From: Prevotella sp.
GTDB taxonomy: Bacteria > Bacteroidota > Bacteroidia > Bacteroidales > Bacteroidaceae
Assembly: GCA_017428055.1 (NCBI GenBank)
Contig: JAFRRN010000032.1
Coordinates: forward strand, 1-64,000
Direction: 5' to 3'
DNA: 64,000 nt
Each line of letters opens with the position of its first letter. Position 1 is the stretch's first letter. Below the pieces are notes generated by a model, which was given only the letters and a program-made list of their open reading frames with translations, was not told where the DNA came from and did no database searches. Made by a program: the position numbers and the translations under genes. Positions 8,319-64,000 of this stretch are shown one piece after another.

Positions 8319-8473
8319 TGGCCGAATGGGATTTCCATGCGGATAACCATTCTCGTCAAATTGGCATACATCGAGCAAGATAGTCACTTGAGACCGCCCC
8401 ACCGCAGGGAATAAGCATTATTATAGTGCGGCGAGGCGAGCCGTTTGAGTCGGGAAAGGATGTGCGTTCAGTT

Positions 8474-10651
8474 CTAACGCACAGGGCGCACGGATTGCTC
8501 GTAGTAGCGGGGACACATGTAGCCGCCCCAGTAGCTCCAAATCACGTCTACCGAAGAGAAAGACTGGAGGTAGCCATTGTACTCGCCGTCAGGCGTACAC
8601 GACCAATAATCGCCTTCTTCGCCCTCGCCGTAGAAACAGACATCCATGCGGGAGCCTGCAGCGGGGAGGAAGATTTTACAACCGTTAATCCTACTCGTGA
8701 AATTCCTGCCATACACGCCGTTCTGCGTTGTCCACACCGATGTAGTGTTATTCAAAACTTCTTTAATCTGATATAGTGTTGGAGCGGAAGCTACCTGTCC
8801 GAAAGCATAATACCCACCGTATGCCTCTGGCGTGGAAGCACCTTCATTACAGCATCGCCACTTCGTACCTGAGGGCAGCCCCAAGTCTATCCAGTGCGGG
8901 TGATGGCGTCGGGACACGAAGTGTCGATATGGCTCAACGTGTAGTCGATAGGCTCGCCATAGATAGGCTCATCGCTACCAACATATTTCACGTAGCCCAT
9001 CAGCGTGACCGTGGCGGGCGATGTGTTGCGGAAATACGCATACCGACTGTCGGTATAGGATGTGCCAAATTGCTTGAGCGATATCTCCTTATCCCTGCCG
9101 TTGGGGTCGCGATACACATACCCCCAGTCTGCCACTCCATCTATGTCATCAATGGCAACTTTCACGGAAACGTCGAAACGATAGTCATAATTAACCCCCT
9201 CATACGTGAACCCATCTTTCTTATACTGCGACTTGGTTACCTTGAAATCTTTTATTATAGGTAGCAATGCCTTCGTTTCAAAAGACTTGATCTCTCCCAT
9301 TGCAGCCACATGGTTGGTTTTTGTCCCAAAGATAAGTATAATAGTTGTATTTAGTAGAAGGCTTTAAACCATTGAAAGTGAATTCTATCATCCCTCCATC
9401 CCCGTTTATTTCCGTCTTTTTGTACCGCTCCTTGTTATTAGTGGAAGAATAAACGATAATGCCATAATCTGTATCAAAATAGACGCTCGGCGATTTCAAT
9501 ATATAAGGCCATATATATCCACGGAGAGTTACGGAATGGTGGGTCTCATCCTTATGAAGCCCTGTCTTTACACCATCCTGCACATCTCTCACAAAATCCG
9601 TTATGGTATAGGGATGTTGGATATTGCTTACAATCCTTCCTAATAAAGATGTAAGCGTAGACGCCCAACTCCCAACAACATTTGGCATACTGCTTCTCTG
9701 CCCGACATATTCTGCAACATCTGTAGGCAAATTGTCAGCAGCCCAAGGAACTGCTACTTGGTCTAAAAGGGTCATCCCACCCTGTACTCCCAATGTTATT
9801 AACACATTGTTATTTCCAGAACCATAATAATTATCGGTAAACGCATTCATATACCCGTTTTCTATGCTTTGAATCCCTTGGTAAACTGTTGCTCCGCCAA
9901 GTAGTAGGGCAGGTATTGATACGGGGGTGGATGCTCCTGCGGTCATAAATTCAGCAACGCCCGATCCTGCTATAGTAACACCACCAACAAATACAGCTCC
10001 TACACCTCCTATTACTTCAATTGCCCCACCAACCCTAACAAGCCAAGGTCTTCTGTCAATATCTGGCACAAGCCTTGCTGTTTTTACGGACATCGCCGTC
10101 GGATGGGTTACACGCAAGCTATCGTAATTGTATGATATACTGTCGGGTAATACGACTGTTAGGTTGAATGTCTCGTTGTCTATCCAGTCAAGTGTCAACC
10201 TATACTCATTCATCGTCATTTCGACGAGATAGGCATCCTCATTGAACTGGATATGGGAAAAGACAACACCCAACGAATCATCGGGGCACATCAACACCAT
10301 TTCAAGAGGCTTTTCATCATTCTCCAACTTAGTCAAAACGACTGTACCATCCTTGCACAAACGCATCTCAGACCAATCGCCGATGTCTTCTGTCAACAGC
10401 ATGCGGTCAGGAATTGACACGAAGCTGATGCTGTCTATGGAGAGGATGTTCCTAACAAAAGTCGTGTCAGGACATACTAATGTCACATCATCCTTGTTTG
10501 GCTCATCATGGGATATTTTGACAAGATTGTCAGTTATAAAACATAAGGTATCTTTTTCTTGACCATAGACAACCACACCGTATTGCGCTTTCACGTCCAT
10601 AGTCGATAAGGGACCAAGGATGAGCAAAAGGGTAAAAAATAACTTTTTCAT
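8474..10651 (-). pseudogene. Large secreted DLGLPSGTKW surface protein, broken by two frameshifts
   Basis: Three overlapping frames read as one protein if two single-base changes are corrected. The first part (10651 to 9278) starts with signal peptide MKKLFFTLLLILGPLSTMDVKAQ and includes a glycine/alanine-rich hydrophobic stretch and a fibronectin-like segment ending KPSTKYNYYTYLWDK. The frame then shifts at an A-run (T-run 9318-9322 on the plus strand); removing one base joins it to NHVAAMGEIKSFETKAL. The second shift lies at 8901-8906, where one missing A turns the expected DANHPHWIDLGLPSGTKW into a premature stop. The restored C-terminus matches the gene at 1-425. It overlaps the upstream small gene by 4 bp (ATGA). 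It is either a decaying gene or holds homopolymer sequencing errors. Confidence 0.75.
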
Positions 10652-17819: not shown

Positions 17820-19178
17820 CTACAAAATCCCAAACTGATGCAGGAATATCGCCAGGATACAGAGCGGACACACAAAACGAATCAAGAAAAGGAACACGCC
17901 AAAGAACGTTCCCTTGAGCGTCCCCCAGTTGGTAAACTCATCCTTGACGATGCCTTTCGGCACATACCAACCAAGGAAAAGACACGTAAGGAAACCGCCG
18001 ATGGGCAGGAATATCTGTCCTGTGACGAAGTCGAAAACGTCAAAAAGAGACTTGTCGCCAACACAAAGGTAATCCATCTTACCCAATGACAGGGAACTCA
18101 GCGCACCAAGTATAAACGTGGTAATCGTGACGATGGCGGCTCCCTTCTTGCGCGTGATATGCAATTCCTCGAAGAAGAACGCCGTACTCACCTCATGGAG
18201 CGACATCAGGGAGGTCAGTGCCGCCAACGACAACAAGACATAAAACAATAACGACACCACCCATCCTATGAGAGGGAATCCCGCGAATGCCTGGTTGAAC
18301 ACGTTGGGCAGGGTGATGAAGATGAGCGAGGGACCGCTGTCGGGATTGATGCCCACGGAAAAGGCGGCGGGGAAAATCATCAGTCCCGCCAAGATTGCCA
18401 CCATGGAATCGACCAGCGACACCTGCACCGCCGAGCGCAACAGGTTGGTTTGCCTACTGAAATAGGACGCGTATGTGCAGATGCACCCCATGGCGATGCT
18501 CAACGAATAGAACGACTGTCCCAAGGCATTGAGGAACATGCCACTGTCAACCTTGGAGAAGTCGGGCTTGAAGAGGAATGAAATTCCCTTCGAGGCACCA
18601 GGTAAGAGGCACGATGCCACCACGATGACGAGCAAGAGGATGAACAGGGCGGGCATCAACATCTTGGACGCTTTCTCGATACCGCCCCTCACACCATGGA
18701 TAATGACGAAATGCGCCATCAACAAGAACACCAACGTCCAAAACACAGGACGGATGGGGTCTTGCGAGAAAGCATTGAAATACGTCGTCACATACGTCGG
18801 GTCGCCTTTCAACTCGCCCATGACGGACGAGAAAACGTATTGCAAACACCACCCCGACACCACGGCATAGTAACCCGTGATGAGGAATCCCGTCAAGACA
18901 CCCATGAAGCCGATGAACTTCCATGGTGTGCCATTGGCGAGCTTGGTATAGGCCCGCGCCGTGTTGGACGCGCCATGCCGCCCGATGATGAACTCACTCA
19001 CCATGCACGGGATGCCCAGCAGCAATACACATATTATATATATAAGGATGAAGGCAGCCCCTCCGTTCTCTCCCGTCATGTAGGGAAACCGCCACACGTT
19101 GCCCAAGCCCACCGCCGAGCCTGCCGTGGCAAGGATCACTCCTATCTTGCTTCCGAAGTTCGCTCTTTCTTCTTTCAT
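17820..19178 (-). CDS. Sodium:neurotransmitter symporter (NSS) family transporter, tandem paralogue
   Basis: The 452-residue protein closely parallels the gene at 16396-17760: GVILATAGSAVGLGNVWRFP, TGENGGAAFILIYI, and the shared NPDSGPSLIFITLPNVF segment. It has the same layout of about twelve membrane helices and ends in a similar CILAIFLHQFGIL. Tandem duplication followed by divergence is the simple reading. It is the first gene of the pair, with a promoter at 19206-19213 divergent from the VanZ-like gene. Confidence 0.9.
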   Translation of the reverse strand: MKEERANFGSKIGVILATAGSAVGLGNVWRFPYMTGENGGAAFILIYIICVLLLGIPCMVSEFIIGRHGASNTARAYTKLANGTPWKFIGFMGVLTGFLITGYYAVVSGWCLQYVFSSVMGELKGDPTYVTTYFNAFSQDPIRPVFWTLVFLLMAHFVIIHGVRGGIEKASKMLMPALFILLLVIVVASCLLPGASKGISFLFKPDFSKVDSGMFLNALGQSFYSLSIAMGCICTYASYFSRQTNLLRSAVQVSLVDSMVAILAGLMIFPAAFSVGINPDSGPSLIFITLPNVFNQAFAGFPLIGWVVSLLFYVLLSLAALTSLMSLHEVSTAFFFEELHITRKKGAAIVTITTFILGALSSLSLGKMDYLCVGDKSLFDVFDFVTGQIFLPIGGFLTCLFLGWYVPKGIVKDEFTNWGTLKGTFFGVFLFLIRFVCPLCILAIFLHQFGIL

Positions 19179-19205
19179 CTATCAACAAACATACAATAAA
19201 CGATG

Positions 19206-19233
19206 CAAAATTAACAATTATTTCTTACTTTTG
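19206..19233. promoter_or_regulatory. Back-to-back promoters for the symporter operon and the VanZ-like gene
   Basis: On the minus strand TAATTTTG (19213-19206) serves the symporters, with TTTG at 19240-19237 as a possible -33 element. On the plus strand TACTTTTG (19226-19233) serves the gene at 19254. The two -7 boxes are only 12 bp apart, so polymerases would compete. Confidence 0.55.
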
Positions 19234-19253
19234 CAGCAAAAATGTAAGCAAAC

Positions 19254-19661
19254 ATGAATTATTTGAAACATCTAATCACTTATTACCCCATCACTACGAC
19301 GCTCATTGTGGTCATTTGGTTTCTCTGTCTCTGGCCGATTTTTCCAGAAACACCCCTCAGCCATGTGGCATTGATTGACAAATGGACGCACATGGTGATG
19401 TACGGAGGCACGTTCGGCATCATGTGGATAGAGTACCTACGCAAGCATACCACATACAACCCTGTGAAGATAGTATGCCTGGGGTTCATAGCACCCATAT
19501 TGATGGGCGGCTTGATTGAGATATTGCAAGCCAACTGCACGGGCGGACGGCGCAGCGGGGAGTGGATGGATTTCTATGCCGACGCCATCGGCGTGGTTCT
19601 CGCAGCTATCTTCGGTATTCTTCTGGGATGGTATCGCGCCAGAGGGAAAAGGGGTATTTGA
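19254..19661 (+). CDS. VanZ-like membrane protein
   Basis: The 135-residue protein has four predicted membrane segments and the VanZ-family motifs LIDKWTHMVMYG after the first helix and DFYADAIGVVLAAIFG near the end. VanZ in enterococci gives low-level teicoplanin resistance by an unknown mechanism; the role of chromosomal homologues is not known. Its 3' end overlaps the convergent CYTH gene by 56 bp. Confidence 0.85.
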   Translation: MNYLKHLITYYPITTTLIVVIWFLCLWPIFPETPLSHVALIDKWTHMVMYGGTFGIMWIEYLRKHTTYNPVKIVCLGFIAPILMGGLIEILQANCTGGRRSGEWMDFYADAIGVVLAAIFGILLGWYRARGKRGI

Positions 19662-20109
19662 GCATGTTCTTGTTGTAGAAACGCCCGTCGCCTGTCACCT
19701 CCATGCCGATGAAATCGGGCTTTTCGAAGCTTTCATCCTCCTTGCGAAGCTCCACTTCCGCCATCACGAGTCCCTCGTTATCGCCGTAAAACTCATCGAC
19801 TTCAAACGTATGGTCGCCGCATTTCACAAGATAGCGGCGCTTGTCGATAATGCCTCCACGGCAGAGATACATGAGGTTTTCCGCCTCTTCCATCGTGATT
19901 TCCTTCTCAAACTCATATCGGGTGAGCAAGCCGACAAAGGGTTTCCCCTTGATCGTCAGATACGCTTTGTCGTCGCGGATGCGGATGCGGACGGTGGCAT
20001 TCTCACAAGGGATGTAGCCTTGTTTGATATGGGTACTTGAAAAGGCGGCGCTTTTGAATGCGTCGCCTTTCTTCACGAGAAACTTTCGTTCTATCTCCAG
20101 TCCGCTCAT
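19606..20109 (-). CDS. CYTH domain protein (triphosphate tunnel enzyme family)
   Basis: The 167-residue protein starts with LEIERKFLV, the ExExK motif of the CYTH fold. Charged tunnel-lining motifs follow: VRIRIRDDKAYLTIKG, YEFEKEI, RRYLVKCGDHTFEVDEFYG and MAEVELRKEDESF. Members hydrolyse inorganic triphosphate or thiamine triphosphate, or make cAMP; short bacterial ones are usually triphosphatases. Its ATG overlaps the stop of the small gene at 20106 by ATGA, indicating coupled translation. Confidence 0.88.
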   Translation of the reverse strand: MSGLEIERKFLVKKGDAFKSAAFSSTHIKQGYIPCENATVRIRIRDDKAYLTIKGKPFVGLLTRYEFEKEITMEEAENLMYLCRGGIIDKRRYLVKCGDHTFEVDEFYGDNEGLVMAEVELRKEDESFEKPDFIGMEVTGDGRFYNKNMLKYPFSLWRDTIPEEYRR

Positions 20110-51613: not shown

Positions 51614-51644
51614 TTGCAATAATGGGATATAATTGCTATTTTTG
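51614..51644 (+). promoter_or_regulatory. Promoter of the XRE-ImmA pair
   Basis: TTG (51614-51616) and TATTTTTG (51637-51644) are 20 bp apart, 39 bp before the ATG at 51684. The longer frame from 51633 would start inside the promoter and is rejected. Confidence 0.65.
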
Positions 51645-51683
51645 CAACGAAAAGAAGCGAAAGAACCAAACTATACAAACTTT

Positions 51684-52037
51684 ATGGGAGAAATCATCAA
51701 CCTGAGCATTGGCGACTTCCTGCGCCGTCTACGCCTAAAACTGGGGCTTACCCAAGAGGAGGTAAGCCGACATTTAGGTATCAGCCAACCCGCTTACCTA
51801 AAATATGAGACAGGGGCGACAGAGGTGTCCGAGGAGATGTTGCGACGACTGGCAGAGCTGTTCCAAGTGAATGCCGATGACCTTGTAGGGCGAAAGATGT
51901 CAGTCTTGGCTGCCGACATCGCCTTTGCGTACCGCAAGGAAAAGGGAACAGAGGTGAACATCGCCGACACCGAGGCATTCCGTACCATCGTGAGAAACTA
52001 TATGGAGATGCGCAATGAACTGGAAAGCAATCAATGA
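51684..52037 (+). CDS. XRE family helix-turn-helix regulator
   Basis: The 117-residue protein has a Cro/C1-type HTH: FLRRLRLKLGLTQEEVSRHL, GISQPAYLKYETG and EEMLRRLAELFQVNADDLVG, near the N-terminus. It overlaps the ImmA-type peptidase by 23 bp. In such pairs the peptidase usually cleaves or inactivates the repressor when a signal arrives. Confidence 0.88.
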   Translation: MGEIINLSIGDFLRRLRLKLGLTQEEVSRHLGISQPAYLKYETGATEVSEEMLRRLAELFQVNADDLVGRKMSVLAADIAFAYRKEKGTEVNIADTEAFRTIVRNYMEMRNELESNQ

Positions 52038-52737
52038 CCAAGAACTCGAAAACCTCGCCATGCAACTCAGGCAGGAAATGCAAGTGCCTTTCACCGAGCC
52101 AATCATCCTTGAGAAGGTGATTCGCGAAAAGCACATCCTTGCCTATTTCCAGCCGATCAGCGACCAACTTTCGGGCATGGCCATCCTTGTGGGGCAGGAT
52201 GCGAACACGTATCGCTTTATGTTGGTCAACACCAATCACCAGTTCTGCAAGCAGCGGTTTACGGCCTGTCACGAGATTTACCACCTACTCTACCAAAAAG
52301 AATTTGCCTCCGTTATGGAGAAAGAACACATCACAGACACAGACGATATGGAAGAGACACGAGCCAATCATTTCGCATCCGCCCTGCTCATGCCCGAAAT
52401 CGGTCTCCGAATGCTTACCCCTATCGAGCAACAGAGGAAAGATACAATCACCATGAACACGCTGATGATGCTGCAATACCGGTTTCTCTGCTCCCACCAA
52501 GCATTGCTCTACAGACTATTAAGGCTGGGATGGGTCAGCAAGAGCTATCTTGACAAGATGAATGGCGACGTGATAAAACACGTGGAGGAATTTGGCTACA
52601 GCCCCAACCTGTATCGCCCAACAAGAAAAACGGAGCTATGGGGCGACTACAACCTCCTTGCACGTGAGCTTTTAGACAAGGGTATCATCACGGCAGACAA
52701 GTATAAAGAATACCTCTCTGCCATGAAAATCACATAA
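52015..52737 (+). CDS. ImmA/IrrE family zinc metallopeptidase
   Basis: The 240-residue protein has the zinc site HEIYH near residue 86 (TACHEIYHLLYQKEF) and the third-ligand segment EETRANHFASALLMP. IrrE/ImmA peptidases cut a partner repressor to switch on stress or mobile-element genes. The partner is presumably the overlapping XRE protein. The N-terminal VIREKHILAYFQPISDQLSG belongs to the usual substrate-side lobe. Confidence 0.9.
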   Translation: MNWKAINDQELENLAMQLRQEMQVPFTEPIILEKVIREKHILAYFQPISDQLSGMAILVGQDANTYRFMLVNTNHQFCKQRFTACHEIYHLLYQKEFASVMEKEHITDTDDMEETRANHFASALLMPEIGLRMLTPIEQQRKDTITMNTLMMLQYRFLCSHQALLYRLLRLGWVSKSYLDKMNGDVIKHVEEFGYSPNLYRPTRKTELWGDYNLLARELLDKGIITADKYKEYLSAMKIT

Positions 52738-53512: not shown

Positions 53513-55333
53513 ATGCAAAAGGTTCGACAAACCTTGAATGGGAGGATCTTCTATCAAGGAAATATGAATCATGCTGTTATTGGAAAGATAGGTGAAGTGA
53601 AGAAAATGCAAGATAAATACATATCCATAGCAATGACCGAGTTGATACCAGTAATACGACAGATCCTACTGGAAGGTGCCTTCTTGGCGGTCTCGTTGGC
53701 AATGGCCGTATCATGCTCGGACGACAAGGGGGCGATGCGGGAGCGGTTGGAGTATGTGAGCCAGTGCAATCGCGCCGACACGGTGTTTACGGAGGCATGG
53801 CTACCCACAGTGGACTCATTGGTGAGTTTCTTTGACCACCACGGCAACGCCAACGAGCGGATGATGGCGCACTACCTGCAAGGGCGCGTACACCACGATA
53901 TGGGCGAAACACCAGCTTCATTACAAGCATATTACGATGCCATAGACTATGCAGACACCACTAAAGTAGATTGTGATTTTATAACATTGAGAAGCATCTA
54001 TGGACAGATGTCACGTATCTTCCATCAGCAAGACCTTCCGCATGATGAGATTTGGGCTATCCGACATTTCATAGATTGTATGCGAAGAACTTCAAATATG
54101 GAAGACTACGTTGTCGCAAGAAGTCAATTGATTAGACCTTACTATCTTCTTGGTGAAAAGGATTCCGTATTGCAAATTATCATTGACACTTACCAATCTC
54201 TCAAGCACTTGGGAAAAGACCAACGTGCCGCTTCTATCTTATCAGTTCCAATACATATCTATATAGAGCGTCGTGATTTGCAAAAGGCCAAACAAATAAT
54301 GGACATCTTTGAGAATGAGTCTGGCCAATTTGACGAAAACGGGAATATAGCCAAAGGTCGTGAGTATTACTATTATACCAAAGGACTATATAAACTTGCT
54401 ATAAATGACTATCAATCGGCAGAGCAATATTTCAGGAAAGTCATACTATATGGCTATTTATCAGAAGGATATAAAGGTCTACTTTCAGTTTATAGGGAGA
54501 AACAAAATATGGACTCCATTGTTCGTTTCTCCTGTCTTTACGAAGCCGCACAGGACTCCATACACAATAAGATGCAGACAGATGTCATTCATCAGATGTC
54601 TTCCCTCTACAACTACAGCAGAAGTCAAAGGGAGGCAGAACAAGAGAGAGAAAACACAAGAAAGGCAAGGATAATGCTCGGAGTGTTCCTGCTGATTACC
54701 ATTGTACTGATGGGGATAATAGGCATCATTTTTTTGCTCTACCGTAGGAAACAACAAAAGAAGAGGGAAAGGATCTGTAAGTTGGAGAGAGAATTGGAGG
54801 ACACCAAGCTTGCCCGCAGGGAAGTCCAAGAAGAATTGAAGAGGCTAAAGGCCAATGACTATGAGGGAATGATAGCTGAAAAGGAGAGGAAAGAAGCGGA
54901 ATTGACCCGTGAAATTGAACGGTTGCAGGCTGAAAACAACATTTACAAGGGTAAAGATGCAATCAAGGAAAAGGACTGCCTTGAGGATTTCAGAAGCAGT
55001 AAGATTGCCCAATTGTTCATGAAGAGGGCAAAGGGGAAGTCCGAGAGGCTCATGCCGACCGATGCTGAATGGAGTATGCTGATGTCACAATTCGGCAAGG
55101 ACATCCCCATTACCCTTAAGTCCTTTGCAGGGAACAAGCCGTTGTCCCCATTGGAACAGCGTATCTGCGTGCTGCTCTTTCTCGACATCCCGGAAAAGAG
55201 CATCTCGATAATGACAGACTCCGTAGCCTCTACGGTGTCGAATGCAAAGGCTCGGGCCAACGAAAAACTCTTTGGCAAAAAAACGGCACACTCGCTAAAA
55301 ACCGACTTATTTCATGCTCTCAAACAGGTTTGA
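53513..55333 (+). CDS. TPR-repeat membrane protein with C-terminal LuxR-like HTH domain
   Basis: This is a typical Bacteroidota one-piece regulator. The N-terminal part has a lipoprotein-like signal ending in SLAMAVSC near residue 68, then TPR-like helices (about 100-360). A membrane helix (IMLGVFLLITIVLMGIIGII, about 385-410) is followed by a coiled coil, then an HTH segment with LSPLEQRICVLLFLDIPEKS and STVSNAKARANEKLFG. It probably senses a signal outside and acts on DNA inside. An alternative start at 53633 fits the signal sequence better. It lies directly before the DUF3244 and RHS genes, which it may control. Confidence 0.75.
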   Translation: MQKVRQTLNGRIFYQGNMNHAVIGKIGEVKKMQDKYISIAMTELIPVIRQILLEGAFLAVSLAMAVSCSDDKGAMRERLEYVSQCNRADTVFTEAWLPTVDSLVSFFDHHGNANERMMAHYLQGRVHHDMGETPASLQAYYDAIDYADTTKVDCDFITLRSIYGQMSRIFHQQDLPHDEIWAIRHFIDCMRRTSNMEDYVVARSQLIRPYYLLGEKDSVLQIIIDTYQSLKHLGKDQRAASILSVPIHIYIERRDLQKAKQIMDIFENESGQFDENGNIAKGREYYYYTKGLYKLAINDYQSAEQYFRKVILYGYLSEGYKGLLSVYREKQNMDSIVRFSCLYEAAQDSIHNKMQTDVIHQMSSLYNYSRSQREAEQERENTRKARIMLGVFLLITIVLMGIIGIIFLLYRRKQQKKRERICKLERELEDTKLARREVQEELKRLKANDYEGMIAEKERKEAELTREIERLQAENNIYKGKDAIKEKDCLEDFRSSKIAQLFMKRAKGKSERLMPTDAEWSMLMSQFGKDIPITLKSFAGNKPLSPLEQRICVLLFLDIPEKSISIMTDSVASTVSNAKARANEKLFGKKTAHSLKTDLFHALKQV

Positions 55334-55897: not shown

Positions 55898-58800
55898 ATG
55901 AAAAGAACAATTCATTATTTCCCTTTATTAATGTTATTCCTATTGCCCATGCCATTGCGGGGGAATCACCATGAGAGTGTAAACAGATGGAATGAAAACC
56001 TGAATGACACGATATTCGTAGATAGTTTAATAATGGATTCCACGCTATTGCAAGGAAGACTAATGGCTTCAAATTCCAGCAACAACGAATACACCGTTAC
56101 ATTTCCTGAATATGAGTACAAGTCGCCAGAGGCATCAGCATTCCGTAAATACGGGGAGGTGGAAGCCAACGAATACACGGGAAGCCCTAACATCAGTATA
56201 CCATTATACACCCTCAAGTTCCACGACATCACCATACCCATATCATTGACTTACGACGCATCGGGGATAAAAGTAGACCAAGAAGCATCATGGGTTGGGC
56301 TGGGCTGGAATCTCCTGACTGGCGGTTGCATCAACTACGTGATGTCGGGCGGCAAGGACATCAGCAACCTTTACAACTCTCCCGCTTACTTCCAGCAATT
56401 CGCCAGTCAAGGGTCTGGGTATTATGTTACTTTCACATCCAACATGGAAAACGACTTCCCATTGGTTGAGGATTTGCAAAACGGCTATGGCGAACAAGAT
56501 TATTATTCCGTAAACGTTCTCGGCAAGAATTTGCTATTTGTTTTTAATCCCGTCACCAACCAGCCCGAAGTCATTGGAAGGAACGAAGAACCCTTCAAGG
56601 TGGAGGAGTTAAATGGCTGCACATACCAAAGCACCAATGACGCAAGGTGGCGAATCACAGATGCCAACGGGCAACAATACTATTTTGAGCAGGGGGAATC
56701 AACGATCTCCAATGTTATTTCAGGTATGTACACTTCTACGTGGAATCTGACAAAAATAGTCTCTCCCAAGGGATTCACCGTAAATTTCACCTACTCTGAT
56801 ATATATCAAGTCGAATCGCTTGCCAATTACAGCGAAGTGTATGATTTCATACTCAACAAAGAACCCTATAGATGGTTGGTGAATAACAAGATGGCCTCTT
56901 GCGACGAACTATTCGGCTACCATAACGCTTATGACCCGCCTTATCACTATATCATGACAAAATATCTAAGCCGCATTGAGACAGACAACGAAAGGGTAAC
57001 ATTCTCACTGAGCGACAGGGATGACTACTCCGGCGCGAAGAGAATCGACACGATAACTATCACATCACGCCTGACGGGCAAGGAAATCAAGAAATTACAG
57101 TTCAAATACTCCTACCTTTCCTCGTCTACTGTTGGAGGAAACCACCTTAGTCCATCCGATGACCCCATGGAGAACTTCCCGAAGTTACGGACTCGCCTCA
57201 TTCTCAACTCCATCAGTGAGATATTCGGTATAGACACTTTGAGTACCGCATTCGAATACGACCCTACTCCATTACCTATGAAAACCTCTTTTGCCAAGGA
57301 CTTTTGGGGATATTACAATGGAAAGGAGAACAACAGCCATTCCATAGCACAGACAATCAGGACACTCCTTCCAACCTACTTTCCTCTGTCAGGCATTTAT
57401 AATCTTCAATCTGAAGAAGCTCTACCCCGATTCACGGGAGCATACAGATATTGCGACCCCTCTTTCATCCAAGCGGGAACGCTAAAAAGAATCACCTATC
57501 CTACCAAGGGATATACATCGTTCACTTACGAGCCACACCAATTCATCTCACAGGACATTGCATACCCCTCTTCGGCGGACATGCACGCCATCAGGCGTTA
57601 CTACACCATCTACGCGGGTGATTACACATCAACGCCATATAGCTCACCACCCACTCATTACCAATTCGACATCGATGCCACGTTTCATGGGACTTTAAAG
57701 ATTAATTACGAGGGGACATTGAGCAGCCTTTACAACGGCAACGCCAATGTGACCATCTACCCCATGAATGGCGGAAGCCCCATAAGATTCGACCTAAGGG
57801 ATGCCCCTTCTGAAGAAATAGCATACGGAAATTCATATTCAGAGACAAGATACCTGACTTTGGGGGCTGGCTCATACATGCTTACCGCCACTTGTCCCTA
57901 TCCCCCATACGGCGATATGTCTTTCAGGGTATATACAACCATTGACATCAAAAAAGAAATCAGTCCCAGCATTTACCCCGTTTCGACAGGTGGCGGGTTG
58001 CGTGTGAAAATGATTGAAGACCACGACCATAACGGAACTTTACTGCGGAAGACAGAATACAAGTATGAGTTGGAAAACGGCATTTCGAGTGGTAAATTGT
58101 TGCGTCCCATGCAATGGGCGGAACGCAAAACCATCATATTCATCGGGCCAGACTATCCAGGCGATAATGCTGGCGCATCGAAATACGAAATCCTTCGCCT
58201 ACATAACACTCCTGTCGGAATACCTTCCTTCACATCTTCCGTGAGCAGGGGAGTTGTGGGATATTCACGTGTGGTAAAGAAACAATATGAGTCCAGCGAG
58301 ACTGTGGGCAGGGAATGTACATCTTTCTACCTCAACCGTATACCCATAAAGGAATTAGGCAAGTTCTATTTCTTTGAAAGGTTTGACAACGGGAAACTTG
58401 AAAAGCAATATGTAACGGACAAGGACAGTACTATCATCAGAAAAGTGGAAAACTCATATACCCCCATATCTTACATGCTTCCTATTTACAATGCTATATA
58501 TGAGAATAGGTACATAGACTTCAGAGGGGCTGGGATATTGTCAATGGACTTTCCACATTACAAGTTTTGGACTTACCCTTTCCGAACAAGCTGGAGTTTC
58601 CTTTCCCGTTCCACAAAAACAGAGTACGACGGCACGGATTCCTTGATTGTTACCCATGATTATACATACAACCTGGGCAACCATCAAGTAGCCAGCGACA
58701 GCTATAACTCCAGTATTGACAGCTTATGGTACGTGGGAAGATATTTCTATCCCTCCGACTACACCACTTCCATCATGCAATCCATGTGCGATAGTGCGAA

Positions 58801-59389
58801 ATTCATACTTAATCCTATCATCAAGGAAACGCTTTCCGTTATGAAGGGCGAAACGGAGCGAGTCATACGAAAGCATGAGAACCAGTATGTTTCTATCCAG
58901 AGGGACACGAGCCTTGAGGATGGGGTGAACTTTTGTATTAACAAGTCCTCATTCGCCCCATCTGGGGGTAGCCTGGAACAGCGTCTGTCATACACATACG
59001 ACCATTTCGGTAACGTGACAAGCGTCACCAAGGATGGCAACGAATATGTTGCATACCTATATTCTTACAACCATACTTATCCTGTTGCAGAAATCAAGGG
59101 CGCATCCTATAGTCAAATTGTCAGCTGGTTAGGTACATCACGTATCAATTCGCTTTCCTCTTCCACCACGGGAATAGCCGAACTTCTGTCAGAAGTCCGA
59201 AATATCCTCGCCGCCAAGGACATACTGGTTACCACTTATACCTTTGAGCCATCGGTGGGCATGACCAGCATGACATTACCCAATGGCACTACCACATATT
59301 ACGAATATGATGCGGCTGGAAGACTTTCGGTTGTACGTAATCATGACGGAAGTTTAGTGGAAAGGAATACCTACCATTATAAACAATAA
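55898..59389 (+). CDS. Large exported YD/RHS-type shell protein (first of two)
   Basis: The start MKRTIHYFPLLMLFLLPMPL gives a signal peptide. The protein is 1163 residues. It opens like the N-terminal part of other Bacteroidota RHS systems (YTGSPNISIPLYTLKFHDIT, SLTYDASGIKVDQEASWVGL, GWNLLTGG). It ends with YD repeats: LSYTYDHFGNVTSVTKDGNE and YYEYDAAGRLSVVRNHDGSL. No toxin tip is present, so it may form the outer half of the shell and act with the next protein, which begins 5 bp later. Confidence 0.8.
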   Translation: MKRTIHYFPLLMLFLLPMPLRGNHHESVNRWNENLNDTIFVDSLIMDSTLLQGRLMASNSSNNEYTVTFPEYEYKSPEASAFRKYGEVEANEYTGSPNISIPLYTLKFHDITIPISLTYDASGIKVDQEASWVGLGWNLLTGGCINYVMSGGKDISNLYNSPAYFQQFASQGSGYYVTFTSNMENDFPLVEDLQNGYGEQDYYSVNVLGKNLLFVFNPVTNQPEVIGRNEEPFKVEELNGCTYQSTNDARWRITDANGQQYYFEQGESTISNVISGMYTSTWNLTKIVSPKGFTVNFTYSDIYQVESLANYSEVYDFILNKEPYRWLVNNKMASCDELFGYHNAYDPPYHYIMTKYLSRIETDNERVTFSLSDRDDYSGAKRIDTITITSRLTGKEIKKLQFKYSYLSSSTVGGNHLSPSDDPMENFPKLRTRLILNSISEIFGIDTLSTAFEYDPTPLPMKTSFAKDFWGYYNGKENNSHSIAQTIRTLLPTYFPLSGIYNLQSEEALPRFTGAYRYCDPSFIQAGTLKRITYPTKGYTSFTYEPHQFISQDIAYPSSADMHAIRRYYTIYAGDYTSTPYSSPPTHYQFDIDATFHGTLKINYEGTLSSLYNGNANVTIYPMNGGSPIRFDLRDAPSEEIAYGNSYSETRYLTLGAGSYMLTATCPYPPYGDMSFRVYTTIDIKKEISPSIYPVSTGGGLRVKMIEDHDHNGTLLRKTEYKYELENGISSGKLLRPMQWAERKTIIFIGPDYPGDNAGASKYEILRLHNTPVGIPSFTSSVSRGVVGYSRVVKKQYESSETVGRECTSFYLNRIPIKELGKFYFFERFDNGKLEKQYVTDKDSTIIRKVENSYTPISYMLPIYNAIYENRYIDFRGAGILSMDFPHYKFWTYPFRTSWSFLSRSTKTEYDGTDSLIVTHDYTYNLGNHQVASDSYNSSIDSLWYVGRYFYPSDYTTSIMQSMCDSAKFILNPIIKETLSVMKGETERVIRKHENQYVSIQRDTSLEDGVNFCINKSSFAPSGGSLEQRLSYTYDHFGNVTSVTKDGNEYVAYLYSYNHTYPVAEIKGASYSQIVSWLGTSRINSLSSSTTGIAELLSEVRNILAAKDILVTTYTFEPSVGMTSMTLPNGTTTYYEYDAAGRLSVVRNHDGSLVERNTYHYKQ

Positions 59390-59394
59390 TCTTT

Positions 59395-62300
59395 ATGGGA
59401 AATATGGAAAATAGCAAGATTTTCACTATATTTGCAATGTCATTACACCTCATAGGAGTAATGGGTCAAAGTAACGTTCATAATTACGTCATGAAAGAAA
59501 CCATGCTAAGTGATGACTATATGGTAAAAAACACCGAAGTAAGGTACTATAATGGATTGGGTACCCCTGTCATGTCTGTAACGGATGCTTTATCAGGCAG
59601 CGGAATGTTCACATACTCAATGCAATCTTATGACTTACTCGGCAGGCAGACGCAAACATGGTTGCCCGTGACGACCTCCAACACATCGCCAAGCTATGTC
59701 GCACCATCTGAAATCCCCTCCATGTCAGAATCATTCCACCATGATGCCCATGCATACTTGCTTGTGTCTTATGACGCATCAGACCGACTATTGGAAGAAT
59801 GGGGAGCTGGAGAGACATGGCATCATGAAGGGCGCAAAAAGGAGACTTCCTATCGGTTTAACCACGCCAACGAAGTAAGATTATACGATGCTCCCACGGA
59901 TGGCTCATGCTCCTTGGTAAAGAAGGGATATTATGCCAAGAACAGACTCTCCGTAACGGAAGCCTCTGACGAGGAAGGGCACTCCATACAGGTTTTCACG
60001 GACATGCAAGGACGCAAGGTGCTGGAGCGGCGAAATGGCAATAATGACACATACTTTGTGTACAACGACTTGGGGCAGCTCCGTTTCGTGCTGTCCCCAG
60101 GCTACCAAACGGAGGGACACAAGGCCAAGTACGCTTATGAATACCGATATGACGACAGGGGGCGGATGGTGAAGAAGATTCTGCCGGGTTGCCAATACGT
60201 GCAGTATTGGTACGACAGCACTGACCGACTCCTGTTCATGCAAGACGGGAAGCTGCGAGCGCAGGGCAAATACCGTTTCTTCTTTTGCGACCGCTTGGGA
60301 AGGCTTGCCGTGCAGGGTACATGTACCGCCTGCAATCGCGGCACTTACTATGCCGCCGTCAGTTTCACCCAAGGAACGGGTGGTTTTTGTAATACGGGAT
60401 ATGTGCTTACCAAGAGCGGCATCGTCACCTCACCGAAGTTGGAAGTCGTGAATTATTATGACACCTATGGATTCATGGAAAGGCTCACGCCCGAGGAGCA
60501 GGACTCCTTGTCGTTCTGCCCCTTGGCGGGCTATCCCACGTCAGAGACGGCTGCAAAAGGATTGCCGACGGGAATCGTTACATACCTGATAGAGAACCCT
60601 TCTTTATACACAATCGCCACTACGTATTACGACGGGAAGGGAAGACCTGTCTGCACACGCGCCACTAACCATCTTGACGGGATGGATGTCATGCACGTAA
60701 AATATACTTTCACGGGTAATCCCGAAAAGACCTGGCATCGCCAATCGTCGTCCATAGACATCGGGATAACAGAGGAATACGAATTCATGTACGACCATGC
60801 GGACAGGCTTCAGAAAACATGGTACTCGCTGAACGGGTGCAGCCCCTTCGACCTATCGGAATGCTCATACGATGAATTGGGACGCATTTACACGAAAACC
60901 ATAGGTGGGACGGAGACCGTCCATTATGGCTACAATATCCGTAACTGGCCGACTGCCATCACAAGCCAGAAGTTCGCCGAGACCTTGACATACGGTGGGG
61001 CTGAGGATGGGTTCACGCCTACATACCCCTGTTTCAATGGCAACATATCAGCCATCCGCTGGCACGTTCAGGGGGATACCATACAGAGAGGCTACCAATT
61101 CCACTATGACAGTCTCGACAGGCTCACGGCAGCCCATTACGGAGAGGGCACGACGATAGGGAATAACGAGGGGCGGTACGATGAGAATGCCACTTACGAC
61201 AATATGGGCAACATGGTGAGGTTCAAGCGATACGGCAAGGCAGACAATGGCGCTTACGGGACGGTGGACGACCTGGTTATTTCACACGACGGCAACCAGA
61301 TGATCAAGGTGACCGACCATGCGGAGTACGATCCGACGGCAAAGGGGGCGTTCCATTTCAGTGACGGGGCGAATGAGAGTACGGAGTACACCTACGATGG
61401 CAACGGTAACATGACGAAAGACCTTAACAGAGGATTTACCTCCGTCAGCTACAACAACATAAACCTGCCTAACCTAATCGTCAATGGAACAAACAGGCAT
61501 ACAAGAATCGTCTATGACGCTGCGGGACGAAAACTCACCTCATATTCGGTAACAACAGCCCAGCTCTTATGGGACGATGAGGAAGAAAGTGCGTCAGGGG
61601 ATACCAATGAGCCGCGCAGGGCAAGGGAGACCATGCCCAAGGGCTTTAGCGACTATATCGACTACTGCGCCAACATCGTCTATGACGGGGAAAAAGCCAT
61701 CGTCCTCAATCCCGAAGGGTATGCCGTGGTAGACCAAGGAGGTAACGCTACCTTCCACTACTATCTCCGAGACCACATCGGCAGCAACCGGGTCGTGTTC
61801 ACCCCACAGGACAGCATCGAGCAGGTGAACCACTACTACGCATGGGGTGGGCTGATGGACATCAGCTCCAACGAGGATGCCCAGCGATATAGGTTCTGCG
61901 GGAAGGAACTATTAAGGGACAACGGCATCGACTGGTACGACCACGGGGCAAGATGGTACGACGCGACATTGCCGACTTGGCATACCATGGATCCATTAAG
62001 TGAGAGTTACTACAATATCAGTCCGTTTGTGTATTGCGCAGGGAATCCCATTAATTTAAAAGATTTAGATGGAAGAAAGTTCGTTTTTACAAATGGTACA
62101 ACAGATTCGTTTAAAGAATCATTTTACAAAGCAATCAATCTCCTTAATACGAAAGGGTGTGGTGATTTATATAACTTGATAGAAAGTGTTTCAATCAATA
62201 TATACATAATTGAAAAATATGACATAGAGGATGGCAACTATTTTGACAGCACAAAAGAATCTCTTTTTTGGAATCCTCATAGGGGTATTAAGACAACGAA

Positions 62301-62622
62301 TGAAATCTTTTTATCACCTACCACATTATTGAATCATGAATTAGACCATATCTCTGAATACTTATTTAATAATAGTCAGTATAACATCAATTCTAAAGAT
62401 GACGATAAAAACCTTTACACAAACAAGGAGGAAGAACGAGTAATAAAAGGATCAGAACAGAAAACCGCAAAAGCGTTAGGGGAAATTAGAGATGGAGAAA
62501 CAACAAGAACTGACCATTCTGGTTTTGCTTTTGAGACGAATGACCCAACTTCAAATAAACCGTTAAATGAGAGTCATGATGATGAATTTGTTATATATGG
62601 GCAGAAAATCAATAAACAATAG
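59395..62622 (+). CDS. RHS-repeat toxin with C-terminal metallopeptidase-like (HELDH) tip
   Basis: The 1075-residue protein has a signal-like N-terminus (IFTIFAMSLHLIGVMG), then many YD/RHS repeats (YDASDRLLEEWG, YDAAGRKLTSYS), and the conserved RHS core end, YRFCGKELLRDNGIDWYDHG onward to CAGNPINLKDLDGR. After the core (about residue 895) the composition becomes AT-rich and a new domain starts. It contains NHELDHISEYLF near residue 981, matching the HExxH zinc site of M91-like toxins, and further glutamates in EEERVIKGSEQKTAKALGE. So a metallopeptidase toxin is likely. A probable immunity gene starts 4 bp after the stop. Confidence 0.85.
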   Translation: MGNMENSKIFTIFAMSLHLIGVMGQSNVHNYVMKETMLSDDYMVKNTEVRYYNGLGTPVMSVTDALSGSGMFTYSMQSYDLLGRQTQTWLPVTTSNTSPSYVAPSEIPSMSESFHHDAHAYLLVSYDASDRLLEEWGAGETWHHEGRKKETSYRFNHANEVRLYDAPTDGSCSLVKKGYYAKNRLSVTEASDEEGHSIQVFTDMQGRKVLERRNGNNDTYFVYNDLGQLRFVLSPGYQTEGHKAKYAYEYRYDDRGRMVKKILPGCQYVQYWYDSTDRLLFMQDGKLRAQGKYRFFFCDRLGRLAVQGTCTACNRGTYYAAVSFTQGTGGFCNTGYVLTKSGIVTSPKLEVVNYYDTYGFMERLTPEEQDSLSFCPLAGYPTSETAAKGLPTGIVTYLIENPSLYTIATTYYDGKGRPVCTRATNHLDGMDVMHVKYTFTGNPEKTWHRQSSSIDIGITEEYEFMYDHADRLQKTWYSLNGCSPFDLSECSYDELGRIYTKTIGGTETVHYGYNIRNWPTAITSQKFAETLTYGGAEDGFTPTYPCFNGNISAIRWHVQGDTIQRGYQFHYDSLDRLTAAHYGEGTTIGNNEGRYDENATYDNMGNMVRFKRYGKADNGAYGTVDDLVISHDGNQMIKVTDHAEYDPTAKGAFHFSDGANESTEYTYDGNGNMTKDLNRGFTSVSYNNINLPNLIVNGTNRHTRIVYDAAGRKLTSYSVTTAQLLWDDEEESASGDTNEPRRARETMPKGFSDYIDYCANIVYDGEKAIVLNPEGYAVVDQGGNATFHYYLRDHIGSNRVVFTPQDSIEQVNHYYAWGGLMDISSNEDAQRYRFCGKELLRDNGIDWYDHGARWYDATLPTWHTMDPLSESYYNISPFVYCAGNPINLKDLDGRKFVFTNGTTDSFKESFYKAINLLNTKGCGDLYNLIESVSINIYIIEKYDIEDGNYFDSTKESLFWNPHRGIKTTNEIFLSPTTLLNHELDHISEYLFNNSQYNINSKDDDKNLYTNKEEERVIKGSEQKTAKALGEIRDGETTRTDHSGFAFETNDPTSNKPLNESHDDEFVIYGQKINKQ
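61903..62049 (+). repeat. RHS-core direct repeat, copy 1 (in the intact toxin gene)
   Basis: This 147 bp at the end of the RHS core is repeated at 63419-63565 with no gaps and four differences. It marks the junction between the fixed core and the variable toxin tip. Confidence 0.95.
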
Positions 62623-62626
62623 TTGC

Positions 62627-63382
62627 ATGTGCATCCTGATATGGACCATCGGGACCATGGGTGCTTTCGCGACGAACCGCTACAATTTTTATTTGGAGGG
62701 CGTTGACAAAGTAATCGTGAAAAGAGGTCCTTGGGATGCACTTCCCCCCGTGAGTGTCAGTTGCATGGATTTTGAGGGGCAGTTGCATTTTGATCAGTTT
62801 GTGATACGTGACGGGGAAAGAATCAAAGATTTATGCAAGTTGATGGAGTCCCTGAAACCTAAAGAATGCAAATATGGGGTTGACGTAAGGTGTAAGATAT
62901 ACATGTACCATGGCGATGAGCTTGTCACCACCGCATGCATGAACAAGTACTCCTGCATGATTGACGGGAATTGTTACAAGACGACAGATGAGATGGTGGA
63001 ATTCCTCAATGCGATTCCAGACGACGAGCTTTGCCCACCTGGCACGTACACACGAAAACTGGATGGCAGCATAGTAGAAAGGTCATTTCCCAATGGAAGG
63101 GACAGCTTAACTGTCTTGATTGACGAGCGACTGGTGCCGCGCTTGACAAAATTGGGGCTGGAAACCCCTATCAGGTTTGAGGTAATGTGCACGGCCGAAC
63201 AAGATGGCACCCCTACGATGGTGAAGGCATCCGCCACGGACATGGACGGGAACAGACGGGCCGTCTCCGATGAAGTCACCCAAACGGTCGTGGCATTCTT
63301 CAAGGAAGACATCAGATGGAAGCCGAACAAAGAACGAATGTGTTTTGACATCATCCCTGTCAATATTACGTTCATTCCGTAG
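62627..63382 (+). CDS. Probable immunity protein, exported
   Basis: The start at 62627 gives a short signal-like MCILIWTIGTMGAFA; an ATG at 62597 would overlap the toxin gene. The mature part has no recognised domain. Segments KVIVKRGPWDALPPVSVS and GQLHFDQFVIRDGERIKDLC stand out, with a C-terminal AFFKEDIRWKP. Location directly after a toxin tip and before a displaced tip is the standard place for an immunity gene. That is the only evidence for this role; a secreted site would suit protection outside the inner membrane. Confidence 0.6.
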   Translation: MCILIWTIGTMGAFATNRYNFYLEGVDKVIVKRGPWDALPPVSVSCMDFEGQLHFDQFVIRDGERIKDLCKLMESLKPKECKYGVDVRCKIYMYHGDELVTTACMNKYSCMIDGNCYKTTDEMVEFLNAIPDDELCPPGTYTRKLDGSIVERSFPNGRDSLTVLIDERLVPRLTKLGLETPIRFEVMCTAEQDGTPTMVKASATDMDGNRRAVSDEVTQTVVAFFKEDIRWKPNKERMCFDIIPVNITFIP

Positions 63383-63418
63383 GAAGGCTTTCCGATTTTC
63401 AACATAAAAATTCAGAAA

Positions 63419-63565
63419 AAGGAACTATTGAGGGACAACGGCATCGACTGGTACGACCACGGGGCAAGATGGTACGACGCGACATTGCCGACTTGGCATA
63501 CCATGGATCCATTAAGTGAGAGTTACTACAATATCAGTCCGTTGGTGTAGTGCGCAGGGAATCCT
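63419..63565 (+). repeat. RHS-core direct repeat, copy 2 (in the orphan tip)
   Basis: Same as 61903-62049, displaced by 1516 bp, with only four differences: A to G at 63430, T to G at 63544 (Phe to Leu), T to G at 63550 (Tyr to stop) and a silent C to T late. Such identity would allow homologous recombination. Confidence 0.95.
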
Positions 63566-64000
63566 ATTGTTTTTGTGGACAAAGATGGCAAAAGGCCATC
63601 TGCTAATGAAGCTGCATTAATGGCAGCACATGTGTATGAGGACAAGGATGCCGATAATTATATGAACAAACTTAAAGATGCAGGCTGGACCATATCTGAT
63701 TTTAATACTTCAATTAAAATGGAATATTCAAAATTCAGTCAAAATGGATTAAAATCAGAATTGTTTCAAAGAACTATTGATGGGGCTACCGAATATGCCT
63801 ATGTCTTTGCAGGAACAAATCCACTTTCAATAGAAGACTGGGTGGAAGACATTGCCCAAGTTGCAGGTTTGTCCTCGCAGTACAATACTGCGATATATAA
63901 TGCTAAAACTTTGTCCGATGAATTAGGAGATAAGGAATTGACATTTGTTGGGCATTCTTTAGGTGGCGGGGAGGCTGCCGCATCAAGTATGGCAACGGGA
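63419..64000 (+). pseudogene. Displaced (orphan) RHS toxin tip with lipase class 3 domain, cut by window edge
   Basis: The first 147 bp copy the RHS core end, with a Tyr codon changed to TAG (63548-63550), so it cannot be read as a full RHS gene. It has no signal or upstream shell. After the core the frame continues CAGNPIVFVDKDGKRPSANE, then a class 3 lipase-like domain: YAYVFAGTNP, then SIEDWVEDIAQVAGL, and the nucleophile motif TFVGHSLGGGEAAA (serine near 63956). The domain runs off the window. An internal ATG at 63620 could start it, but this is unproven. It looks like a silent toxin cassette. Confidence 0.85.

What the first reader, a model, noticed from the sequence alone, without database searches (positions are those of the whole stretch)
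61903..64000. Silent RHS toxin cassette with lipase tip beside an intact metallopeptidase tip
A 147-bp piece of the RHS core (61903-62049) recurs 1516 bp downstream (63419-63565) with four differences, one creating a TAG stop. Behind the first copy sits a HELDH metallopeptidase-like tip, then a probable immunity gene; behind the second sits a class 3 lipase tip (GHSLGG). Displaced tips of this kind are known for Rhs/CdiA systems; the pairing of these two effector types, and the stop that keeps the second one silent, make this locus worth study. Recombination between repeats would swap the toxin and delete the immunity gene.
Basis: partly seen in the sequence, partly recalled or inferred. Interest (0 to 1): 0.85.

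Follow-up and report, generated by a model that had tools for sequence, protein, structure and literature searches.

The report
Silent spare toxin tip behind RHS
A Prevotella-like bacterium carries a displaced, apparently switched-off lipase toxin tip and its probable antidote gene behind its intact toxin gene, a known kind of spare-part store, and related genomes hint at how such tips get swapped.

Summary
A 147-bp stretch of RHS core (61903-62049) recurs at 63419-63565 with four differences, one a TAG. Copy 1 leads into an intact 1075-aa RHS protein with a Peptidase_M91-like tip and a putative immunity gene. Copy 2 leads into a lipase tip that ends past the window (contig position 64267) and overlaps a lipoprotein gene, its probable immunity gene. 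This is an orphan Rhs toxin/immunity cassette as described by Poole 2011 and Koskiniemi 2014. The TAG is not the main reason for silence: only 48 core residues remain, with no start before them and no signal peptide. I classed 37 named loci with this tip as 8 on long RHS frames, 20 behind core fragments, 6 on short secreted carriers, 3 undetermined. Two sister genomes share one core; the lipase is main tip in one, displaced in the other, and a mosaic breakpoint 99-135 bp before the junction suggests exchange inside the core tract. The tip family is related to the phospholipase Tle. In passing I found RHS-free carriers: a 44-residue signal-peptide-plus-core-stub bearing unrelated tips behind a transglutaminase-like gene, which is more novel than the cassette.

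The parts
55898..59389 (+). RHS_A: first RHS-repeat protein (1163 aa), no tip recognised; probable partner of RHS_B
   Evidence: ORF; RHS_repeat 8e-8; several relatives have single open frames of about 1900-2300 aa at the core
59395..62622 (+). RHS_B: main RHS gene, 1075 aa, intact, with C-terminal M91-like tip
   Evidence: ORF; DUF6443 6e-18, RHS_repeat 3e-5; Rhs_assc_core 54.1 bits, cut-off 32.5
61903..62049 (+). repeat copy 1: 3' end of the RHS core up to the tip junction
62047..62622 (+). main tip, Peptidase_M91-like, HExxH (HELDH)
   Evidence: Peptidase_M91 24.6 bits, cut-off 25; of 5 homologs scanned one is over the cut-off, L099 29.4; H, E, H of HExxH invariant in 6 of 6 aligned
62597..63382 (+). 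imm1: putative immunity gene for the M91 tip, signal-peptide-like start by eye; start codon uncertain
   Evidence: ORF 62567-63382; N-terminus printed; homolog directly behind an M91 tip homolog in G065
63419..63565 (+). repeat copy 2: core fragment of the displaced cassette
63548..63550 (+). in-frame TAG inside copy 2
63566..64000 (+). displaced lipase tip; continues outside the window to contig position 64267 and is followed there by the lipoprotein gene imm2 (64264-64842)
   Evidence: family profile (18 relatives, own tip not among them) hits PDB 7ubz_B at 2.9e-20; Foldseek 9cys_A for the L062 homolog

Best explanation
It is an orphan Rhs toxin/immunity cassette. The lipase tip was once, in this or a donor lineage, the C-terminus of an RHS protein. 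A module carrying the M91-like tip and imm1 was then placed at the end of the core, and the old tip was pushed downstream with the last 147 bp of the core. Shown by sequence: the repeat, the junction at the Rhs tip border, an open lipase tip frame with the conserved GHSLGG serine motif, the overlapping lipoprotein gene, and the lack of an upstream start and of a signal peptide. Shown in a pair of sister genomes only: the same lipase tip as main tip in one and displaced in the other, with a mosaic breakpoint inside the core tract. Inferred: that the lipase, if deployed, attacks membrane phospholipids in the periplasm of a rival; that lipid-anchored imm2 blocks it there; that the present benefit of the cassette is mainly immunity against siblings or rivals that still use this tip, with the tip itself a decaying reserve. 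The confidence given is for origin and architecture; the present role is much less sure.
For: Repeat and differences. One core plus one fragment found in the genome. Lipase tip relatives in 11 of 150 genus genomes, own included. In 37 named loci the tip is on long RHS frames in 8, behind core fragments in 20, on short secreted carriers in 6, undetermined in 3 (classed by eye). G125 and G144 are 97.1% identical over 3251 bp (core and the sequence before it) up to the junction, while the lipase tip is main in G125 and displaced in G144; 22 of 25 informative sites fit one breakpoint 99-135 bp upstream, 12 of 10000 shuffles as good. Tle relation: 7ubz_B 2.9e-20; 9cys_A 7.3e-9, TM 0.59, for the L062 model. 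imm2 homologs in 10 of 200 genomes, own included; in 6 of these 10 directly behind a lipase tip or its remnant, the other 4 not examined. Same architecture in print: PMC3967940, PMC3150448 (passages).
Against: No reads, transcripts or second strain of this species were available, so neither silence nor recombination is shown here. Most crossovers in the tract would carry the stop along. The sister-genome mosaic rests on one pair and 25 sites, and the G144 JAB-orphan core is nearly as close to G125 over the 215 bp (0.912 against 0.926). Between G125 and G144, imm2a has 1 synonymous and 4 replacement changes, so purifying selection on it is not shown; imm2b has w 0.17.
Confidence: 0.87

Rival explanations
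1. Plain pseudogene remnant: same origin, but the lipase cassette is now decaying debris from an old tip change, with no reserve or immunity role.
For: Stop in the core fragment; pieces of other immunity-like genes just downstream, L003 6913-7110 and 8391-8450; a broken lipase orphan in G144.
Against: The lipase tip frame (230 aa) and imm2 (192 aa) are open, and the own tip shares the 35 columns invariant in the 7-row alignment A1, which includes it.
Confidence: 0.3
2. Programmed switch: the cassette is kept so that recombination with the main gene yields a subpopulation with the lipase tip, as shown for Salmonella.
For: 97% identity over the tract; the G125/G144 mosaic; Salmonella LT2 precedent with a 522-bp, 95% tract.
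Against: The stop inside the tract; a tract of only 147 bp; no recombinant junction seen (no reads available).
Confidence: 0.15
3. Assembly artefact: copy 2 is a misjoined copy of copy 1.
For: Draft genome of 106 contigs, 93.57% complete; no reads to check.
Against: Four differences, distinct downstream genes, and the same kind of architecture in G144, G119 and others.
Confidence: 0.03

Closest known systems
Orphan rhs-CT/rhsI module of Salmonella Typhimurium LT2 (Koskiniemi 2014, PMC3967940; abstract and passages seen)
   Same: Fragment behind the main rhs gene, near-identical core tract, own immunity gene, no initiation or export signals, recombination would delete the main immunity gene
   Different: Tract 147 bp against 522 bp; a stop in the tract; Bacteroidota core (DUF6443) in a two-gene arrangement; lipase and M91-like tips; no experiment here
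Orphan cdiA-CT/cdiI and rhs arrays (Poole 2011, PMC3150448; abstract and passages seen)
   Same: Arrays of tips with immunity genes; orphans fused to full-length genes in other bacteria; rhs tip border motif PxxxxDPxGL
   Different: Border here reads NPINLKDLDG and NPIVFVDKDG, so the DPxG part is altered; neither tip is shown to be toxic
Tle/Tli phospholipase effector-immunity pair of Enterobacter cloacae (7UBZ, 9CYS; PMC11470151, passages seen)
   Same: Lipase domain related by profile and fold; lipoprotein immunity; L087 and L096, the two scanned, have ankyrin proteins behind the tip as Tli is ankyrin-built
   Different: Carried by RHS, not known to use T6SS; the immunity protein of the own branch is not ankyrin-like (no Pfam hit) and its family model has no solved relative at E 0.001
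Polymorphic toxins of Bacteroidetes with T9SS neighbours (TANFOR class, PMC7073777; abstract and passages seen)
   Same: Toxins with variable C-termini whose neighbourhoods hold T9SS cargo proteins
   Different: No TANFOR hit in the NCBIfam scan of RHS_A and RHS_B; RHS shell instead

Membership tests
Orphan Rhs toxin/immunity cassette | Fragment downstream of a full-length rhs gene sharing core sequence up to the tip border, then unrelated | tested here: met
   30-bp steps: identity 0.9-1.0 across the tract, 0.33-0.5 after it, 0.07-0.23 before it
Orphan Rhs toxin/immunity cassette | No translation start or export signal of its own | tested here: met
   No ATG, GTG or TTG in this frame between the imm1 stop and the fragment (sequence); one TAG in the frame; no signal peptide before the tip by heuristic. 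Internal starts inside fragment and tip exist
Orphan Rhs toxin/immunity cassette | Linked immunity gene | tested here: met
   Overlapping lipoprotein-like gene; family directly behind lipase tips or remnants in 6 of 10 genomes, 4 not examined; cognate action not tested
Orphan Rhs toxin/immunity cassette | Same tip fused to full-length core elsewhere | tested here: met
   8 of 37 loci; G125
Orphan Rhs toxin/immunity cassette | Tip toxic and neutralised by its own immunity protein | not testable with these tools
   Needs expression assays
Tle-like / class 3 lipase | alpha/beta hydrolase with GxSxG nucleophile and the rest of the triad | tested here: met
   G, H, S and two further G of the GHSLGG region invariant in 18 rows, own tip has the motif; C-terminal His not in all rows; profile hit to 7ubz_B 2.9e-20; L062 model pLDDT 85, top hit 9cys_A, TM 0.59. 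Pfam Lipase_3 is below cut-off for the own tip (17.1 of 22), just above for G124 (22.5). Activity not tested
Peptidase_M91 | Score over the curated cut-off and HExxH | tested here: inconclusive
   Own tip 24.6 against 25; of 5 homologs one over the cut-off (L099 29.4), three below, one without a hit; HExxH in 6 of 6 aligned
Rhs_assc_core (TIGR03696) | Core-end domain over cut-off | tested here: met
   54.1 against 32.5 bits
T6SS effector | T6SS in the genome | tested here: inconclusive
   PF05943 not found in the own draft genome; of 14 controls only E. coli rings; a divergent Bacteroidales TssC could be missed. T9SS SprA_N present

The most novel reading that the evidence does not exclude
Tips of this pool move between three carriers: full RHS shells, silent cassettes, and an apparently undescribed minimal carrier of 44 residues (signal peptide plus the last residues of the RHS core, ending in DPDG) that bears unrelated toxin tips behind a secreted transglutaminase-like protein and in front of an immunity gene. 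The window's silent lipase cassette belongs to this pool: its closest tips in the tree (support 98/95) sit on the minimal carrier. The RHS shell would then be dispensable for export of the tip, and the retained stub would be what marks the tip border.
Probability: 0.5. Interest if true: 0.65.

Novelty: new member of a known kind. Interest (0 to 1): 0.42.

Why it matters
The locus itself adds a clear Bacteroidota case to the orphan Rhs model. The sister pair G125/G144 looks like a natural record of tip exchange inside the core tract, which would make the switch testable in commensals. The RHS-free carriers, if confirmed, would show how little of an Rhs protein is needed to export a tip, which bears on the open question of what the RHS shell is for.

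Tried and rejected
Not resolved: delivery route. PF05943 gave nothing and is a weak test for Bacteroidales; SprA_N shows that a T9SS component is present. The M91 tip alone found no solved relative at E 1. The model of an imm2 relative is mainly beta (pLDDT 80.4) with no fold match at E 0.001. Of the imm2 family I aligned 10 rows of my choice, and the lipobox-like cysteine is invariant in them; two further relatives in L072 (7703-8353, 8378-8992), left out of that alignment, show no such cysteine by eye. The dN/dS comparison of the sister pair has too few changes to decide whether immunity genes are kept by selection. On the tip tree the full-core and orphan labels are mixed no differently from shuffles (i: 6 changes, shuffled 6.6; ii: 11, shuffled 11.7), so there is no separate orphan clade; the secreted-carrier label needs 3 changes (shuffled 4.8). 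The tree left out L065 and L071 (broken frames) and L097 (same match row as L092, another genome). The contexts of the imm1 homologs other than own and G065 were not examined. Signal peptides were called by my own hydrophobicity heuristic or by eye, not by SignalP.
Full report
Observation. The window is C18:1-64000 of a 4.2-Mb draft genome (106 contigs, 93.57% complete). By its relatives it belongs to Prevotella in the broad sense: same-genus genomes G124 and G125 have contigs of the same lengths and tip matches as Prevotella multiformis DSM 16608 and Palleniella muris NM73_A23; this naming is an inference. G144 likewise matches a MAG record titled 'Bacillota bacterium' (JAMPFD), which looks mislabelled. 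The 147-bp repeat is as described, with four differences, one a TAG at 63548-63550. Chance is excluded. Searches of the held genome found no third copy and no second RHS core.

Anatomy. A small protein with a weak, below-cut-off DUF3244 match precedes two RHS genes: RHS_A (55898-59389, no tip recognised) and RHS_B (59395-62622, 1075 aa). The core-end domain Rhs_assc_core scores 54.1 against a cut-off of 32.5. The main tip is Peptidase_M91-like, just under Pfam's cut-off (24.6 of 25); of five homologs scanned one is over it (29.4), three are under it, one has no hit; HExxH is present in 6 of 6 aligned tips, one further homolog having been dropped for a stop codon. imm1 follows, with a signal-peptide-like start by eye. 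The M91 tip is in 15 of 299 genus genomes and imm1 in 9 of 299, own included. In G065 an imm1 homolog lies directly behind an M91 tip homolog, which supports imm1 as its immunity gene; the contexts of the other imm1 homologs were not examined. Then come copy 2 of the core end, the TAG, and the lipase tip. Beyond the window the tip ends at 64267 and overlaps by ATGA the start of a 192-aa gene, imm2 (64264-64842), with a lipoprotein-like start. Further on lie pieces of immunity-like genes (L003 6913-7110 and 8391-8450), so the locus looks like an array of old cassettes.

The lipase tip. Pfam Lipase_3 is below cut-off for the own tip. A profile of 18 relatives (own tip not among them; its closest named relative L062 is 70% identical) matches the T6SS lipase effector Tle of E. 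cloacae (7ubz_B, 2.9e-20). The model of the L062 tip (pLDDT 85) has that protein (9cys_A) as best fold match, E 7.3e-9, TM 0.59, rmsd 7.1, then a feruloyl esterase and a fungal lipase. Tli of E. cloacae is a lipoprotein with ankyrin repeats (PMC11470151, passages). The proteins behind the tip in L087 and L096, the two scanned for this, have ankyrin repeats. The own branch has another protein, imm2, without Pfam hit. Its family is in 10 of 200 genomes, in six of these directly behind a lipase tip or its remnant (own, G102, G119, G124, G125, G144), the other four not examined. A lipobox-like cysteine is invariant in the 10 relatives I chose to align, but two more in L072 lack it by eye. A periplasm-facing immunity protein fits a phospholipase that acts in the envelope. 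This is inference.

Silence. The fragment holds 48 core residues; in its frame there is no ATG, GTG or TTG after the imm1 stop and before the fragment, and no signal peptide, so an exported RHS-like product would be lacking even without the TAG. Internal starts exist (GTG 63575), so an unexported tip cannot be excluded. 151 of 398 genomes have the core end, and many printed contigs carry several core-end matches (for example G282:C58, G342:C4, G249:C1, G065:C7, G119:C31). Where blastn paired core fragments within a locus (own, G124, G119, G144, G111) they are 78-97% identical.

Three states of one tip. Relatives of the lipase tip are in 11 of 150 genus genomes, own included. One genome-contig scan gave 37 loci across Bacteroidota. 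By open frame upstream and a signal-peptide heuristic (classed by eye): 8 on long RHS frames (L063, L066, L070, L077, L083, L090, L092, L097; three of these run off the locus), 20 behind core fragments, 6 on a short secreted carrier (L061, L062, L065 with a broken tip, L068, L073, L087), and 3 undetermined because the contig ends. Some fragments in draft genomes may be frameshifted full genes. On the tip tree (35 rows) full-core and orphan labels are as mixed as shuffled labels, and the secreted-carrier label needs 3 changes; the own tip is sister to L061 and L062 (98/95).

A natural exchange. G125 and G144 are 97.1% identical over 3251 bp (core and sequence before it) ending at the tip junction, falling to 90% in the last 300 bp. 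G125 has the lipase as main tip; G144 has there a tip with only a weak Tox-MPTase2 match (16.2 of 25 bits), and carries the lipase displaced downstream, broken. In the last 215 bp of core, 25 sites tell the G144 main core from its lipase-orphan core and match one of them in G125. G125 follows the main core far from the junction and the orphan core near it; one breakpoint 99-135 bp upstream fits 22 of 25, reached in 12 of 10000 shuffles. So tips are probably exchanged by recombination inside the core tract. Caveats: one pair of genomes, few sites, and the JAB-orphan core of G144 is nearly as similar to G125 over the 215 bp (0.912 against 0.926). G125's contig ends inside the tip; two lipase C-termini lie on another contig.

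Compared with what is known. Poole 2011 and Koskiniemi 2014 describe the same architecture, including loss of the main immunity gene on recombination (abstracts and passages). Zhang 2012 describes lipase-like, peptidase and JAB tips and arrays of cassettes (passages). The finding is therefore a new member of a known kind. Among the rows listed by seven literature searches I saw no title on Rhs orphan cassettes in Prevotella. Beyond the five papers seen in passages only titles and abstract starts were seen, the lists were cut, and the library lacks most subscription journals.

RHS-free carriers. In L061, L062 and L065 the carrier is a signal peptide plus about 20 residues of the core end up to DPDG. 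L068 and L073 have a longer linker with about 25 core residues, and L087 keeps about 55 core residues behind its signal peptide. Searching 398 genus genomes with the transglutaminase-like gene that precedes the carrier in L062 (Transglut_core2 20.9 bits, below the cut-off of 23.5) found 9 genomes and 11 places, own genome none. By my reading 8 of the 11 have a signal-peptide-stub-tip gene behind it (L143, L144, L145, L146 broken, L147 and L148 with the longer linker, L150, L152 broken), and 3 do not (L149, L151, and L153, which ends in the gene). Among 7 genes with the short carrier, the N-part to DPDG is 57-86% identical in 14 of the 15 pairs that leave out one outlier gene (L144:331-690), 52% in the other, and 39-57% in the 6 pairs with the outlier. 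C-parts are 20-38%, as unrelated sequences give, except in the three pairs that share a tip (74-92%). The gene in front is a Mg-chelatase (YifB/ComM-like, name recalled) gene in L143 (Pfam 1.3e-95), with the same C-terminal sequence visible in several others. This is the signature of a polymorphic toxin with a very small constant part. Pfam recognised no toxin family over its cut-off in the other tips scanned. No paper describing the carrier showed in the rows; Zhang 2012 reports inactive transglutaminase domains fused before RHS repeats. Delivery is unknown.

Delivery of the main toxin. RHS_A and RHS_B have signal-peptide-like starts by eye. The genome has a T9SS SprA gene and gave no TssC hit (weak test). 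A neighbour (C18 65030-66367) belongs to a family with T9SS sorting domains over cut-off in 3 of 8 scanned members, below it in 3 (own included) and unseen in 2. It is in 35 of 200 genomes, in at least 16 of them, own included, within about 7 kb of a printed core match (by eye). A T9SS-linked route is a lead, not a result.

Noticed in passing
L143:1501-3933, L144:331-3770, L145, L150, L152, L061:5848-8280, L062:5848-8280, L068:5560-9035, L073:6093-8460: RHS-free polymorphic toxins: transglutaminase-like secreted gene, then signal peptide plus core stub (44 residues, or a longer linker type) bearing different tips, then a putative immunity gene, often behind a Mg-chelatase gene.
   Followed up: partly
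L003:7031-8368 (contig 65030-66367, just past the window): Protein family with T9SS sorting domain in some members, in 35 of 200 genus genomes and often within about 7 kb of an RHS core: a possible conserved RHS partner.
   Followed up: partly
L003:6913-7110 and 8356-9147: A decayed piece and an open copy of another lipoprotein-like gene (imm3), with a piece resembling imm2 at the start of the latter: remnants of older cassettes.
   Followed up: partly
L026:11034-11898 and 18978-19843: In G125 the lipase C-terminus plus imm2 is present twice at 98.7% DNA identity, which probably broke the assembly at that place.
   Followed up: no
window 51633-52737: Helix-turn-helix-like gene overlapping a gene with a HEIYH motif (XRE and ImmA/IrrE-like by eye, recalled, not searched).
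   Followed up: no
window 53513-55333: 606-aa protein with weak, below-cut-off TPR matches just upstream of the RHS genes, possible regulator by eye.
   Followed up: no
L003:18029-18160: 22-bp tandem repeats (about five units) inside an open frame.
   Followed up: no
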